Shown here piece by piece: positions 33,626 to 40,156 of a stretch of 40,323 bases of DNA. The notes under the pieces are model-generated. The model was not told the DNA's origin. It made no database searches and saw nothing but the letters and a program-made list of their open reading frames with translations. A program made the translations under genes and the position numbers. This DNA comes from a virus, in the IMG/VR virus record IMGVR_UViG_3300023090_000181, positions 1-40,323 of that record. One strand, written 5' to 3'. Position 1 is the first letter of the stretch; each line of letters opens with the position of its first letter.

Positions 33626-34041
33626 GCAACCTCCGCAACGGCTACAGGTGGATTTGCCTTCCGTGGGCCGCGCTTCCGAGCAGTCATGACCTTGACGCGC
33701 TCGAATAGATCAGCGTTGCTCGTTCCATAGGGAAGGATGAGCGATGCGGCCTCGACGTCCAAGGGAGATTTCTCCTTGAGCCGCGCAAGGACGAGGATGG
33801 GGACGCGGAGAGCCGTACCGTGAGCCTGTTTTGCGACAGCCTCAGTCAGATCATGGTCTCCCGAGTCAGCCAGGATAATCAGATCGGTTCCTTCTAGGTC
33901 GGCCCTCAGCGCGAGGATGAGGCTGCTTGCCGTTTTGCATCTCTCAGTCGTAACGTGGAGAGACGTATTCAAAGCGAAGGCAATCAGCTTAGCGTCCTCT
34001 TCCCGCTGGCTCCAGAGAAGTATCTTTCTGCGGGGCCTCAT
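33622..34041 (-). CDS. Receiver-like (CheY fold) protein, degenerate
   Basis: 139 aa. Alternating strands and helices resemble a response-regulator receiver: KILLWSQREEDAKLIAFAL, then DLIILADSGDHDL and VPILVLARLKEKSP. The phospho-acceptor Asp is not at the clean position, so it may be a pseudo-receiver. A basic, Pro-rich tail follows. ATG 34041 overlaps the upstream stop. The role in a phage is unclear. Confidence 0.5.
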   Translation of the reverse strand: MRPRRKILLWSQREEDAKLIAFALNTSLHVTTERCKTASSLILALRADLEGTDLIILADSGDHDLTEAVAKQAHGTALRVPILVLARLKEKSPLDVEAASLILPYGTSNADLFERVKVMTARKRGPRKANPPVAVAEVA

Positions 34042-34976
34042 GCTTGCACCGCCGGGAACTGCTTCCATTCGCGCCCGTCAAGCAGCGAACCGGCATCATC
34101 TCGGCCTATGCGAACCATCCGCTGTCCAGGCCGGTCGTTGTAACAAAATGGCCGGATTACCTTGCCATCGGCTTTAACCAGGCAGGTCGGAGTGCTGGGG
34201 TGAAGATGTTCAACTTCGTGATTTTCGTTCCATGGCGCCCATTCTCCCCACTGCTTGAAGAAGAACGGGACGCGGGCAGCTACACACTGGTTCCGCAGAT
34301 CACGCGCCCAGTTCGGATGCATCGGGCGCGCTTCACAGCCGCTCTCGCCGCCACAGATCACCCATCCGAGTCGCGCAAGACGCTTTTTCGAGTTCCGATC
34401 ATCGAACCGAAGAGCATCGAATCCGTCCGGGTGCCCATCCCAACCTTCCGGCCACGGGATGCAACTAAGATCCACGGGCCCTACCATCGGCTCAACACTG
34501 ACGCCATGAACAACGGCGGTGATGCTCAACAGAATCGGAATGCGCAGATCGGCCATGGGCTGATTCTCGGTAGTGACCATGAGCCAGACGTTGGGGTATC
34601 CGGTTCCCCAATCAGCGGGCAGACACGCAGCGATGCGCTCGGGGCGCTTGGTGCAAAGCTGGTAAGTGAGATTCGGCGTCTCCCGGATGATGGCCCAAGC
34701 CTCGGCGCGCCATGGGTCGGCTTCCTCGATGAAAAAGTCAGACCACGAATCGACGAAAACGCGGTTGATGTGCCCGTACTTCTCGCGGTTCTTTGCCCAC
34801 TTCAGAGGGGCGTTGAACGTCGCCTTGGCAGAGCGGATCACCACGTCGGGGTTCTGTCCGTACCGCTTTTTGTCGGCGAACATATAACAGTTCTTGCAGC
34901 CTGCCGAGACCTTGTGGCAGCCCTGCCAGCAATTCCACGTCGCGTCGGTCCAGGCAATTCCTGTGCTAGCGCCCAT
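34038..34976 (-). CDS. DUF5131 (phage Gp37/Gp68) family protein
   Basis: 312 aa. The N terminus has TWNCWQGCHKVSAGCKNCYM with Cys16, 20, 27 and 30, the signature of this family, whose Cys set suggests an iron-sulphur or radical-SAM-like site. Later conserved parts include NRVFVDSWSDFF, QLCTKRPERI, NVWLMVTTENQ and WVICGGESG. In many genomes it neighbours a three-Cys-motif partner gene (TcmP); none is present here. Substrate unknown. Confidence 0.88.
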   Translation of the reverse strand: MGASTGIAWTDATWNCWQGCHKVSAGCKNCYMFADKKRYGQNPDVVIRSAKATFNAPLKWAKNREKYGHINRVFVDSWSDFFIEEADPWRAEAWAIIRETPNLTYQLCTKRPERIAACLPADWGTGYPNVWLMVTTENQPMADLRIPILLSITAVVHGVSVEPMVGPVDLSCIPWPEGWDGHPDGFDALRFDDRNSKKRLARLGWVICGGESGCEARPMHPNWARDLRNQCVAARVPFFFKQWGEWAPWNENHEVEHLHPSTPTCLVKADGKVIRPFCYNDRPGQRMVRIGRDDAGSLLDGREWKQFPAVQA

Positions 34977-35856: not shown

Positions 35857-36288
35857 TTATTTAGTGAACAGCTTTTCGTCCTCGGTCTCAGCCTCGGTGC
35901 CGACCTCGACTTCATCCGTGACCGATAAAACTTCGGTTGCCGGGAAGAGCTTTTCCTGTAACTCGCCGCCCGACATTTTCAGTTCGCGGACGATCTCTCC
36001 GGTGTCGAGCCGGATGATGGTCTTGATGCCCTGCTTGGGCTTGTGGAACTCGACGACGCATTCGATCTCGCGCATCTCCCAGCCCATGTTGATGTTGTTG
36101 GAGAGGCGCTGAATCATTGCGACTTCAAGCTCGATGCGTTGCTTGAATTGCGCCACTGCGGACTTCTGCTCTTCCTCGGCGCGGGTTTTGTTGGTTACGG
36201 AAAGGGCCAGATGCTTGGCGATTTCCCTCGTCTCCTCTTCCGAAAACTGGTAGCGGAGATACTCTTTAACCTTCACTGTTTCTGCCAT
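35857..36288 (-). CDS. Hypothetical phage protein of recombination region
   Basis: 143 aa. A helical N-terminal half (EEETREIAKHLALSVTNK, QFKQRIELEVAMIQRL) is followed by a beta part (REIECVVEFHKPKQGIKTII, RLDTGEIVRELKM) and an acidic tail. This layout is frequent in phages beside recombination genes; I have no family name. It follows the LRV-repeat gene. Confidence 0.65.
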   Translation of the reverse strand: MAETVKVKEYLRYQFSEEETREIAKHLALSVTNKTRAEEEQKSAVAQFKQRIELEVAMIQRLSNNINMGWEMREIECVVEFHKPKQGIKTIIRLDTGEIVRELKMSGGELQEKLFPATEVLSVTDEVEVGTEAETEDEKLFTK

Positions 36289-36324
36289 TGGTCGGTCTCC
36301 TTGCGGGTTAGGGTGAAATTCCAG

Positions 36325-36975
36325 TTACCGGTTCCCCTTGTTCTTCTTGGCTTCCCAGCGCACATCGTAGTAGCTGTCAGCCGAGAGCTTGTCCAGCACC
36401 TTGACCGGCGTGTTGGGGTTGCCAGCCACGCCCCGGCGCACATCGTTGTCGCTGTCAGCCGAGAGCTTGTCCAGCACCTTGACCGGCGTGTTGGGGTTGC
36501 CAGCCACGCCCCAGCGCACATCGTAGTAGCTGTCAGCCGAGAGCTTGTCCAGCACCTTGACCGGCGTGTTGGGGTTGCCAGCCACGCCCCGGCGCACATC
36601 GTTGTAGCTGTCAGCCGAGAGCTTGTCCAGCACCTTGACCGGCGTGTTGGGGTTGCCAGCCACGCCCCGGCGCACATCGTAGTAGCTGTCAGCCGAGAGC
36701 TTGTCCAGCACCTTGACCGGCGTGTTGGGGTTGCCAGCCACGCCCCGGCGCACATCGTTGTCGCTGTCAGCCGAGAGCTTGTCCAGGAGTGCTGGGATGG
36801 TTGTATGGTGGGCAAGCCATTGGAACCAGTCGAGTTTGTGATTCCTTAACTGCTCAAAGGTTCTCGGCCTTGCGCGAAGCCATGACAGGCAAGAGCCGCA
36901 AGCCCCGTTGATTTCACAGTCCTCGATCACCTTTTCATCGATGATCTCGGCATAGACATTCACTTCCGTTTGCAT
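36325..36975 (-). CDS. Leucine-rich-variant (LRV) repeat protein
   Basis: 216 aa. The first 64 residues include a Cys group (DCEINGACGSC) and an aromatic stretch (LDWFQWLAHHTTIP). The rest is about six near-identical 26-residue repeats with DKLSADS, then a variable pair, DVR, GVAGNPNTPVKVL. This is the LRV pattern (HEAT-like alpha/3-10 solenoid), whose known founder also has an N-terminal iron-sulphur Cys cluster. Binding of a protein partner is likely. The repeats differ only at a few codons. Confidence 0.8.
   Translation of the reverse strand: MQTEVNVYAEIIDEKVIEDCEINGACGSCLSWLRARPRTFEQLRNHKLDWFQWLAHHTTIPALLDKLSADSDNDVRRGVAGNPNTPVKVLDKLSADSYYDVRRGVAGNPNTPVKVLDKLSADSYNDVRRGVAGNPNTPVKVLDKLSADSYYDVRWGVAGNPNTPVKVLDKLSADSDNDVRRGVAGNPNTPVKVLDKLSADSYYDVRWEAKKNKGNR
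36355..36786. repeat. 78-bp tandem repeats in the LRV gene
   Basis: GAGAGCTTGTCCAG recurs at 36383, 36461, 36539, 36617, 36695 and 36773, exactly 78 bp apart. Units are near identical; differences cluster where they encode Asp-Asn, Tyr-Tyr or Tyr-Asn and Arg or Trp. Such identity suggests recent expansion or gene conversion, and copy number could change by slippage or recombination. Confidence 0.95.
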
Positions 36976-36999
36976 GTCGGTCTCCCTTCTTTCGGTTGG

Positions 37000-38145
37000 T
37001 TAGTAGCTGATGGATGTGTGCCGGACTTCGCCCTTGATGATGGCGATGGTGACGGCGCGGGCGATCTTTTCCAGGCCCATTTCTTCCGGAACAAGAGCTA
37101 AGAGTCCGATTACGCTCTGAATGTCTGCGAGCGCTTCGGAGTTGATCTGACGGGTGTGTTCCTTGTTGGCTTCCCGCAATGCCTTTGCGGTGGCCTCCAT
37201 GCGCGCCTCATCTTCCACACGCTTGCGCTCGGCTTCGGTGGCCTCAGCCCGTGCCTGTTCGGCTTCACGCGCCGCCCGATCTTCGGCGTCCTTGGCCCTG
37301 CGGTTGGCTTCCTCTGCCGCTTGCTCTGCAAGGATGGTTGCCCGACGGGCCTCTGCCTCTCGGCCAGCAGCCGCTTGCCGCTCACGTTCCGCTGTTGCCT
37401 CAGCTTCGCGCCGGCCACGCTCTTGCGCATCGGCTATCCGTTGAGCATCGGCGTCCTTACGGTCCCGCTCGGCAGCCTCAGCCCGGAGCCGCGCCAACTC
37501 GGCCGCATCGATTTCCGCCGTCCGCTTGGCCGCGTACATCTCGGTAAGGATTGGGATGGTGCGGCGGGTGATGGCCGTGGCCTCGTCCAAGAACCCGTCC
37601 CAAGCCTCGGAAGTGAGAGGCGAATTGGTCAGGGTCTCAATCTGCGCGGCGATCTCTGCGCTCGTCGCACTGGCCAGCGTGGCCGTCAGGCCGTCGATCT
37701 GGTTCAGCCGGTCACTGAAAGCCTTGGTGCGCTCCTCGTATGCGGTCAGATTGGCGCGTGTGCGCTCGGCCAGGGCGTCAAGCTGGTCCCGCATCATTTT
37801 CCTATTGGCGTCGATGCGGCGGGGCAGATCCTTGAGCTCGGCCACCATGTCTTTGCCGATGCCGTCCAGGTAGGTTTTCGAGCGGGTGATCTTGTGAGCC
37901 AGGGCGCGGATTTCTGCGCGGCCCTTGGCCGTTGTGACGTCCAGGTCAAATGCCCGGACCTTGCCCTCAATTGCGGTGATGATCGGGACCAGGCCGCTGT
38001 CGGCGGTGAACAGGTCGCGAAGCCGGGTGTCATCTGTGGCGATAGCGTATTTTTCGCCGTCGTCAATCACGGCCATCTGAGGCGCGTCGTCGTTGCGCGC
38101 CTCGAAGATGGTCGGTTGGGGTACTACTGCGAGTCCTGCTGTCAT
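37000..38145 (-). CDS. Coiled-coil protein associated with RecT/exonuclease
   Basis: 381 aa. A folded N-terminal part (AVIDDGEKYAIATDDTRLRD) is followed by a very long Ala/Glu/Arg-rich coiled coil (about residues 210-330), and a C-terminal EEMGLEKIARAVTIAIIKGE segment. Similar proteins lie with RecT and exonuclease in many phages and may be recombination accessory factors; the family name is uncertain to me (DUF1351-like at best). Confidence 0.7.
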   Translation of the reverse strand: MTAGLAVVPQPTIFEARNDDAPQMAVIDDGEKYAIATDDTRLRDLFTADSGLVPIITAIEGKVRAFDLDVTTAKGRAEIRALAHKITRSKTYLDGIGKDMVAELKDLPRRIDANRKMMRDQLDALAERTRANLTAYEERTKAFSDRLNQIDGLTATLASATSAEIAAQIETLTNSPLTSEAWDGFLDEATAITRRTIPILTEMYAAKRTAEIDAAELARLRAEAAERDRKDADAQRIADAQERGRREAEATAERERQAAAGREAEARRATILAEQAAEEANRRAKDAEDRAAREAEQARAEATEAERKRVEDEARMEATAKALREANKEHTRQINSEALADIQSVIGLLALVPEEMGLEKIARAVTIAIIKGEVRHTSISY

Positions 38146-38181: not shown

Positions 38182-39099
38182 TTACTTGGTGAAGAATTCT
38201 GCTCCGTCGTCGGCGTCCGCACGCGGGGCAGATGCTTTCTGTGTGGCGGGTTGGGTTTCAGGCTGGGCGGCCGGCTTTTCCGTGCGGGCGCTTTTGACTG
38301 CATCCTTCAGGTTGGTGGCGCTGGCCTTGCCGGTGGAAGCGGGCTGCTGCTGCGACTCTTCGCTGATGTCAACGAACTCAGCATCCTGAATGCCCTGCGC
38401 AGAGATGGTGAGATTCTGAAGCCCATCGCTGGCGCGGTGTTCAAGGGTTTGCGCATTCTGAATTTCAATCGACTTCGGCATGTACTTCATGACCTGAAGG
38501 AGCGCCACCTTGCGTCCGTACATCTCAAGGTTGTTTTCGTTCTGCTTGGCGTAGTGCATATCGCCGACTTTGTTGTAAAAGGCCAGGTGCTTCTTTACTT
38601 TGGCGCGGCTCCATACCTCGATAACCGGCCACTGCGCGCCCTTTACCCAACCCACCGCGTACACATAGGTGAATTCGCCGCCGTCTTCATCACCCGGCTT
38701 GTGTTCGAGGGTTGGAGAGGAGCCGAGCGTGTAATCGAAAAGGTCTCCGTCACGAACCGCGCCCGTCCAGACCGAAGCGCGTCCGGCGCGGGAGATCAGA
38801 TCGACGTACCCTTGCCATCCGGGAACAAGCTGGCAGACGCCCTTGTAGGGCACCAGGTACGCTTGGCCCATGACGCCGACCTCAAAGCCAAGCTGCGCGG
38901 CCATGATGATCGAGGCGAGGATGCTGGTTTGTGTGCACTCGAAGAGCTTCGGGTTCTTGCTCATCTCGGTGACGGCGACACGGCAGAGACGATCAGCCGT
39001 CAGATGCTTCGGGAGCGCCATCGTGATCTGTGCCTTCTGGCTCTCCAGGAGGCCGACGATCTGCTTGCGTGCTAACTGAATTTCGGCGTTGTTTGCCAT
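38182..39099 (-). CDS. recT: RecT-family single-strand annealing protein
   Basis: 305 aa. RecT-type sequence through the core: LFECTQTSILASIIMAAQLG, YLVPYKGVCQLVPGWQGYVD, EVWSRAKVKKHLAFY, YGRKVALLQVMKYMPKS. The C-terminal 90 residues are Ala/Glu/Gln-rich and disordered, as usual. It anneals single strands exposed by the exonuclease encoded just upstream, for phage recombination and possibly concatemer formation. Confidence 0.95.
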   Translation of the reverse strand: MANNAEIQLARKQIVGLLESQKAQITMALPKHLTADRLCRVAVTEMSKNPKLFECTQTSILASIIMAAQLGFEVGVMGQAYLVPYKGVCQLVPGWQGYVDLISRAGRASVWTGAVRDGDLFDYTLGSSPTLEHKPGDEDGGEFTYVYAVGWVKGAQWPVIEVWSRAKVKKHLAFYNKVGDMHYAKQNENNLEMYGRKVALLQVMKYMPKSIEIQNAQTLEHRASDGLQNLTISAQGIQDAEFVDISEESQQQPASTGKASATNLKDAVKSARTEKPAAQPETQPATQKASAPRADADDGAEFFTK

Positions 39100-39115: not shown

Positions 39116-40156
39116 CTACTTGCTCATCCGGAACACTCTGGGTCCGGGTTTGGTTGATGTGAAGGTTGCGACGATCTCCAGCTTGTCGCTGTCGCCGAGG
39201 CCATGCTGAGGCGCGGATTCGAACCAGAAGGACTCGAAAGCGGCGTGCCAGTCGATAACATCGCTGTCTTTGTTGTTCTTCCAGGTGCAAATGCCGGGGA
39301 TGGCCGCGGCGTCGCCCATGTACGCCTTGATGCGTTGCTGAGCGGCTTCTTTGACAACCTCAGCGTCCTTGATGCGCTCCATTGCGGTGCGCAAGGAAGC
39401 CGCCCATTCGGCAACCTCAGCCGTGACCGGCATGGTGATTTCGGTGGACCGCCTGAAACGGGCCTTGAGGTATTCACCATAGGATTCGGAGCCATCCGGC
39501 TCCGGTGGTGTATCGCCGACGATGTGCTTCTGCCACCATTCCTCGGCGCGCTCTTTAATAGCCGCGTCGATCTCTGGGTCACGGTAGAGGGTGTAGGGGG
39601 CGAATTTGTGACCTCCGTACCCGCCAAAGCAGACGGCAAGATCGGCGGCTGGCGTCACGAAGCCCGTTTCCGGCTCGTCGCAAGCCATCATCTGCACGGC
39701 AAGCTGGAACTGATAGGCAATCGGGAAGTTGTCTGACCCGCTCTCGCCCCATTCGTCGGATTTGAAGCCGGCCGTCTTGGCGTCCACCGGACGCCGGTCG
39801 CCATTCAGCCGACGGGCGTCGAGTGAGGCTCCGAGGAGCGGGAATCCGGGAACATGGTGGAGTGTCCAATGGTCTGCGAACTCGAGGGGGATGCCCGTCC
39901 GCTCGGCATAGACCTCCAGGATGGGGCGCTCGAAGCGAGTCCCGAACTCCATGGCGTCGTTGACTTCGACTTCAAGCTGGGCCTTCTTGCTCAGCCAGAT
40001 GTCGATGGGACTCGCGTACTTGCTCATCCCAAAGATGGCCGCAATGTCGGTGCCGGTGATGCAGGTCCGGCGCTCGGCCAGCCAGGCGGCTTTCCGGGCG
40101 TCGTCGTCCTGCTGCTGTAGTGATGTGCTGGGAAGTTCGAGGGTGGGTGTGCTCAT
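39116..40156 (-). CDS. YqaJ-type viral exonuclease
   Basis: 346 aa. YqaJ/lambda-exo fold: TCITGTDIAAIFGMSKYASP at the N terminus, EFGTRFERPILEVYAERTG, the metal-site segment LLGASLDARR with VDAKTA, and AYQFQLAVQMMA. It degrades one strand from a double-strand end and works with RecT. ATGA overlap with the upstream small gene. Confidence 0.92.
   Translation of the reverse strand: MSTPTLELPSTSLQQQDDDARKAAWLAERRTCITGTDIAAIFGMSKYASPIDIWLSKKAQLEVEVNDAMEFGTRFERPILEVYAERTGIPLEFADHWTLHHVPGFPLLGASLDARRLNGDRRPVDAKTAGFKSDEWGESGSDNFPIAYQFQLAVQMMACDEPETGFVTPAADLAVCFGGYGGHKFAPYTLYRDPEIDAAIKERAEEWWQKHIVGDTPPEPDGSESYGEYLKARFRRSTEITMPVTAEVAEWAASLRTAMERIKDAEVVKEAAQQRIKAYMGDAAAIPGICTWKNNKDSDVIDWHAAFESFWFESAPQHGLGDSDKLEIVATFTSTKPGPRVFRMSK

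What the first reader, a model, noticed from the sequence alone, without database searches (positions are those of the whole stretch)
36325..36975. Near-identical LRV repeat array with variation limited to a few codons
Six 26-residue repeats differ almost only at a Tyr/Asn/Asp pair and an Arg/Trp position, on likely surface positions. The phage also encodes RecT and an exonuclease just upstream, which could promote copy-number change. A Cys group precedes the repeats. This looks like a fast-evolving binding protein, perhaps against a host defence or replication target.
Basis: partly seen in the sequence, partly recalled or inferred. Interest (0 to 1): 0.7.

Follow-up and report, generated by a model that had tools for sequence, protein, structure and literature searches.

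The report
Phage repeat protein with variable binding face
A bacterial virus carries an optional gene for a spring-shaped protein whose nearly identical repeats differ only at a few surface positions, on the face that protein engineers randomise to make artificial binders in a similar scaffold, so it looks like a natural, fast-changing binding protein whose target is still unknown.

Summary
The 216-aa minus-strand ORF (36325-36975) has a 62-residue helical N-terminal domain, five full 26-aa LRV units and a sixth truncated into a C-cap. Among full units (unit 1's first codon aside) only codons 10, 11 and 15 differ, always by an amino-acid change; no synonymous difference exists. I found three homologues in other viral contigs (N-terminal domain 49-59% identical; 7, 14 and at least 3 units). 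Each has its own homogenised unit and varies at nearly the same sites. Across the four arrays, 12 of 16 amino-acid-variable columns lie on positions 11/12/15/16/19 (p = 2e-6). These correspond to the positions randomised in the artificial HEAT-like binder library alphaRep, also the top structural match (Z 15.9). In 51 other viral LRV arrays the same five are the most variable, and the face is rich in Tyr, Ser, Arg and Trp. The gene is accessory: five syntenic phage contigs have an empty site, and a sixth carries a different near-identical repeat protein in that slot. No reverse transcriptase was found; RecT is not shared by the other carriers. Best reading: an accessory, recombination-diversified protein-binding solenoid. 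Its target (perhaps a host defence protein) is inferred, not shown.

The parts
36325..36975 (-). LRV repeat protein gene, 216 aa
   Evidence: AF2 model mean pLDDT 92, pTM 0.85
36790..36975 (-). N-terminal helical domain (aa 1-62), conserved in three viral homologues (IDxKVIExCE...AC...L.WL...PRT...LR...W..W.A); C20 and C26 invariant
   Evidence: no Pfam/PHROG family above chance
36712..36789 (-). repeat unit 1 (D10 N11 R15)
36634..36711 (-). repeat unit 2 (Y10 Y11 R15)
36556..36633 (-). repeat unit 3 (Y10 N11 R15)
36478..36555 (-). repeat unit 4 (Y10 Y11 W15)
36400..36477 (-). repeat unit 5 (D10 N11 R15)
36328..36399 (-). truncated unit 6 (Y10 Y11 W15) running into C-cap VRWEAKKNKGNR
   Evidence: a similar cap (VRRxAKx) ends the L001 and L016 arrays
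36976..36985 (-). 10-bp direct repeat GGAGACCGAC before the LRV start codon (one edge of the insertion relative to the empty site)
36291..36300 (-). 10-bp direct repeat GGAGACCGAC before the next gene (other edge of the insertion)
37000..38145 (-). upstream neighbour, phrog_1376, unknown function; flank of the accessory slot
35857..36288 (-). downstream neighbour, phrog_12688, unknown function; directly follows phrog_1376 in five relatives without LRV

Best explanation
The gene is an accessory ('more-on' type), probably early gene encoding an alpha-solenoid binder. A conserved helical N-terminal cap holds a stack of LRV (HEAT-like) two-helix units. Scaffold positions are kept identical by recombination and duplication of units within the array, while positions 10-12, 15, 16 and 19 at the start and outer face of helix B are selected to differ. 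Together these residues form a continuous Tyr/Arg/Trp/Asp-type surface that recognises a protein target, much as engineered alphaRep binders do. Unit shuffling and copy-number change re-pattern the surface. Shown here: the array, shared homologues, site-restricted amino-acid change, block duplications and recombination signatures in relatives, the empty site, and the fold model. Inferred: that the surface binds protein, and that the target is a host factor such as a defence protein or a competing-phage factor.
For: (1) All unit differences in the window are amino-acid-changing; across four arrays 12 of 16 such columns fall on face {11,12,15,16,19}, p = 2.1e-6. Face nonsynonymous 12/47 sites against synonymous 4/82 sites anywhere, Fisher p = 0.001; off the face 4/183 against 3/69. 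(2) The face was defined externally: alphaRep libraries randomise positions 18, 19, 22, 23, 26 (PMC3754942), and alphaRep chains read xxVRxxAAxAL, matching LRV 11,12-VR-15,16-VA-19. AlphaRep proteins are the top structural matches, Z 15.9, ahead of 1LRV, Z 12.2. (3) In 51 other viral LRV arrays the five most variable positions are 12, 16, 19, 11, 15; face composition over 561 units is Tyr 14%, Ser 10%, Arg 9%, Trp 7%, against Tyr 1.5%, Trp 0.2% at other variable positions. (4) L001 units 1-3 and 4-6 are a 234-bp block duplication differing by three amino-acid changes and no synonymous change; L016 has exact one- and two-unit duplications and four-gamete patterns between patches. (5) Empty site in five syntenic contigs, L124-L128.
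Against: No partner, expression or phenotype is known. Column counts are small and neighbouring columns are not independent. In the window alone three nonsynonymous columns out of three would be expected by chance nearly half the time. Site 10 varies in the window and in L016 but is not in the alphaRep set. The 51-array survey used a DNA pattern that fixed some scaffold positions, so the ranking is meaningful only among the free positions. LRV exposed positions may simply tolerate change.
Confidence: 0.6

Rival explanations
1. Neutral concerted evolution: a recently expanded LRV array, homogenised by slippage or recombination, in which only the exposed positions tolerate change; the differences have no specific function.
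For: In the five LRV arrays from plasmids and cellular genomes the same positions rank among the more variable (12, 11, 10, 15). The window alone has only three variable sites. Persi et al. 2016 (PMC5120217) describe relaxed purifying selection as common after repeat expansion.
Against: Relaxed constraint predicts synonymous changes over the whole unit; face nonsynonymous density is about five times the synonymous density (12/47 against 4/82, p = 0.001). L001's block duplication changed by three amino-acid changes and no synonymous one.
Confidence: 0.22
2. A modular nucleic-acid binder: positions 10-11 of each unit act like the repeat-variable diresidues of TAL effectors and read a DNA or RNA sequence.
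For: The two adjacent variable residues per repeat formally resemble such a code; the gene lies in a recombination/replication cluster here and beside DNA-metabolism genes in two relatives.
Against: Predicted pI is 5.0 (L016) and 5.3 (L001), charge -10 and -5; the window protein is near neutral (7.7) although its repeat part is basic. The variable set spans two helical turns and is Tyr/Ser/Trp/Cys-rich in other viral arrays. The top structural neighbours are protein binders.
Confidence: 0.08
3. Targeted hypermutation by a diversity-generating retroelement acting on the repeats.
For: Several variable codons are related as AAC/GAC/TAC/TCC, as A-directed mutation would give.
Against: No reverse transcriptase (PF00078) in the window phage or seven other LRV-bearing records. 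Other variable codons (CGC GGA to TAC TAC; ATG/AGG) are not simply explained by mutation of A.
Confidence: 0.03
4. Assembly artefact: unit number and order are wrong because short reads cannot resolve 78-bp repeats.
For: The window is a virus record (IMG/VR) and no reads are available; the L109 contig ends inside its array, with a degraded third unit.
Against: The frame stays open to a proper C-cap, homologues in independent contigs have the same architecture, including the 14-unit L016 array, and the flanks match the empty site in relatives.
Confidence: 0.07

Closest known systems
LRV family, Pfam PF01816; Azotobacter vinelandii LRV protein (PDB 1LRV)
   Same: 26-residue two-helix unit; Pfam match far above the gathering score; structural match Z 12.2 over 179 residues.
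   Different: No match of the N-terminal domain to any Pfam family, so none to an LRV iron-sulphur domain; only two conserved Cys; units 97% identical in DNA.
alphaRep artificial HEAT-like binder libraries (PMC3754942)
   Same: Constant scaffold repeats with N- and C-caps, diversity confined to two pairs plus one position on helix 2 (18,19,22,23,26, matching 11,12,15,16,19); top structural match, Z 15.9.
   Different: Natural, 26 rather than 31 residues per unit, LRV not HEAT by sequence; few residues per site within one phage; target unknown.
LRV proteins of uncultured Caudovirales (BFVD A0A6J5PUA4, A0A6J5NQI3, A0A6J5NW00)
   Same: Phage LRV solenoids with 32-34% identity to this protein.
   Different: The N-terminal domain and within-array homogeneity were not examined in those entries here.
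Repeat proteins under the accelerated 'horizontal' evolution of Persi, Wolf and Koonin 2016 (PMC5120217)
   Same: New repeat copies diverging under positive and relaxed selection.
   Different: Here changes sit on one predicted binding face, in a phage accessory gene.

Membership tests
LRV (PF01816) | Match above the Pfam gathering score | tested here: met
   109.9 bits against 21.6; five stretches
LRV (PF01816) | 26-residue period, two-helix solenoid | tested here: met
   Period 78 bp; AF2 model with repeated helix pairs, pLDDT 92; 1LRV Z 12.2
LRV proteins with N-terminal iron-sulphur domain (A. vinelandii type) | Match to an iron-sulphur LRV domain and its Cys set | tested here: not met
   No Pfam match of that kind for the N-terminal domain at E up to 10; only C20 and C26 conserved among homologues
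HEAT repeat (PF02985) | Match above gathering score | tested here: not met
   21.0 bits against 23.5
alphaRep-like binder (functional analogy) | Diversity restricted to helix-2 face positions on a constant scaffold | tested here: met
   12 of 16 variable columns on the equivalent face, p = 2e-6
alphaRep-like binder (functional analogy) | Specific protein binding through that face | not testable with these tools
   Needs pull-down or binding assays
Diversity-generating retroelement target | Reverse transcriptase in the same element | tested here: not met
   No PF00078 in eight records; three control genomes ring
TAL-effector-like DNA binder | Sequence-specific DNA binding by repeat diresidues | not testable with these tools
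   Only composition examined: two homologues acidic
Known anti-phage defence protein (PADLOC) | Match to a PADLOC model | tested here: not met
   No PADLOC family for P0001 at E up to 0.01

The most novel reading that the evidence does not exclude
Phages carry natural, modular, antibody-like binder genes: solenoid arrays kept identical in scaffold but re-patterned on one face by unit shuffling, sitting in an exchangeable genomic slot where other near-identical repeat proteins (such as the 26-unit hexapeptide solenoid of L123) can substitute, and aimed at changing host or competitor proteins.
Probability: 0.3. Interest if true: 0.8.

Novelty: new variant of a known kind. Interest (0 to 1): 0.58.

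Why it matters
Artificial binder libraries were designed by fixing a solenoid scaffold and varying five helix-face positions. Finding the same layout, with a sign of diversifying selection, in an accessory phage gene suggests that phages evolved a comparable solution for tracking a moving protein target. It gives a concrete, testable source of natural binders and, if the targets are host defence proteins, a new class of adaptable counter-defence. If the target is something else, the locus still offers a compact system for watching repeat arrays evolve under selection.

Tried and rejected
RecT-driven copy-number change as a general explanation: RecT was not found by family search in the other three carriers. 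Diversity-generating retroelement: no RT. Iron-sulphur N-terminal domain: no Pfam match. N-terminal domain alone: AF2 pLDDT 81, no PDB match better than E 4, so no fold is claimed beyond a helical cap, and a related fold is not excluded. Campylobacterota hits L003-L013 share only generic LRV repeats, and L002 is a chance stretch in a long protein. Plasmid hits, including Synechocystis pSYSA and Deinococcus, are other LRV proteins; none with the N-terminal motif was seen in those translated. The long antisense ORF 36043-36849 (+) stays open because 78 is a multiple of three; not treated as a gene. Literature search found no paper joining 'leucine rich repeat variant' with 'phage' in the held library.

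Full report
WHAT IS THERE. The window is a 40,323-base virus record of a temperate tailed phage: integrase, tail, head, terminase and a replication cluster. Its terminase and a capsid-like protein are 40-44% identical to Roseobacter and Brevundimonas phage proteins. On the minus strand the order is RecE-like exonuclease (39116-40156), RecT (38182-39099), phrog_1376 (37000-38145), the LRV gene (36325-36975), phrog_12688 (35857-36288), phrog_1229, a small ORF, DUF5131, then replication genes. The LRV gene begins 24 bases after its upstream neighbour's stop and ends 36 bases before the next start, as in an operon.

THE ARRAY. The protein has 62 N-terminal residues, five full 26-residue LRV units and a sixth cut at position 15 into a C-cap. 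PF01816 matches at E 1.9e-32. Apart from the first codon of unit 1, the units differ only at codon 10 (GAC/TAC), 11 (AAC/TAC) and 15 (CGG/TGG); all differences change the amino acid. Mean unit identity is 97% in DNA, the highest of about 90 arrays compared.

RELATIVES. Pattern and profile scans of viral contigs gave three homologues sharing the N-terminal domain: L001 (7 units), L016 (record named as from an isolate genome, 14 units) and L109 (contig ends after three units, the third degraded). Each has its own unit consensus, so units within a phage resemble each other far more than units between phages: concerted evolution. Variable columns are 12, 15, 16, 23 in L001; 10, 12, 15, 16, 22 in L016; 11, 12, 15, 19 in L109. 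L001 units 1-3 and 4-6 are a block duplication that has since changed by three amino-acid changes and no synonymous one. L016 holds exact one- and two-unit duplications and four-gamete combinations between the 10/12 patch and the 15/16 patch, as expected from recombination within the array. So copy number and content do change, by visible unit duplication and shuffling.

STRUCTURE AND FACE. AlphaFold2 gives a confident two-helix solenoid (pLDDT 92, pTM 0.85) with helix B at unit positions 11-19; 13, 17 and 18 are conserved scaffold positions and 11, 12, 15, 16, 19 form one face by helix geometry. The best structural neighbours are alphaRep proteins, artificial HEAT-like binders (Z 15.9; 1LRV Z 12.2). 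Helical repeats give generous Z-scores, so this shows a shared layout, not descent. AlphaRep libraries randomise positions 18, 19, 22, 23, 26, and the A3/bA3-2 complex meets through concave faces that hold those residues (PMC3754942). Real alphaRep chains read DEDxxVRxxAAxALG, so these positions align with LRV 11, 12, 15, 16, 19. Using this externally defined face, 12 of 16 amino-acid-variable columns in the four natural arrays lie on it (expected 3; p = 2.1e-6). Per site, face change is about five times the synonymous density (p = 0.001), while off-face change is about half of it. Caveats: few columns, neighbouring columns are linked, and the window alone would not be significant. I did not have model coordinates, so that the face is exposed and concave is inferred from helix geometry and from alphaRep.

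WIDER SURVEY. A degenerate DNA pattern for LRV units gave 79 viral stretches. In 51 arrays outside this family the five most variable positions are 12, 16, 19, 11, 15; the pattern fixed some scaffold positions, so the comparison is fair only among the free ones. Over 561 units the face is Tyr 14%, Ser 10%, Arg 9%, Trp 7%, Cys 5%, against Tyr 1.5%, Trp 0.2%, Cys 0.3% at the other loosely conserved positions. Such a composition is typical of protein-binding surfaces (general knowledge). L001 and L016 proteins are acidic, which argues against nucleic-acid binding.

THE GENOMIC SLOT. Searching with the upstream neighbour gave six syntenic contigs. In L124-L128 phrog_1376 is followed about 20 bases later by the phrog_12688 homologue (86-87% identical) with no LRV gene; a 10-base repeat, GGAGACCGAC, lies at both edges of the window's insert, before each start codon. 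Thus the gene is dispensable and was gained or lost cleanly, probably by recombination at the gene boundary. In L123 the slot holds another repeat protein: 26 hexapeptide units (I-K/E-A-G-G/D-W/G) of 18 bases, again with only amino-acid-changing differences. In the LRV carriers the neighbours are a C5 DNA methylase (L016) and a RecF/SMC-like ATPase (L109's contig). RecT is found only in the window phage among the four.

INTERPRETATION. The RecT mechanism is not supported as a rule. A retroelement is unlikely. The most likely mechanism is a protein-binding solenoid re-patterned by within-array recombination under selection from a changing partner; that the partner is a host defence protein is a reasonable but untested guess (perhaps 35%). 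Neutral homogenisation with tolerant exposed sites is the main rival.

Noticed in passing
L123:4483-5289: The LRV slot of a syntenic phage holds a 268-aa hexapeptide-repeat (likely beta-solenoid) protein: 26 units of 18 bp with variation only at K/E, G/D and W/G (one S), and no synonymous difference; no relative in the phage collection.
   Followed up: partly
contigs 3300044591_002420, 3300042561_002100, 3300044678_001935, 3300028735_000003 (e.g. L045, L074, L086, L088; also L038): Several viral-classified contigs carry clusters of many LRV genes, some in direct succession, with strongly variable helix-B faces rich in Tyr, Ser, Trp and Cys. Whether these contigs are truly viral was not checked.
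   Followed up: partly
window 34038-34976 (-): DUF5131 protein near the slot matches PADLOC candidate-defence models PDC-M41B/M30B and weakly a radical-SAM mobile-pair model; in relative L127 a helicase-methylase takes its place.
   Followed up: partly
L019:2822-4738 (Synechocystis pSYSA): Plasmid pSYSA encodes a 638-aa LRV protein with near-identical units (LTQLALDNNSDVRRGVASNPNCPVEV), beside a DUF262 gene.
   Followed up: no
L020:2348-5782 and 7178 onwards (Deinococcus psychrotolerans plasmid): Two large LRV proteins encoded close together, the complete one 1,144 aa with 32 detected units, the other also LRV-rich.
   Followed up: no
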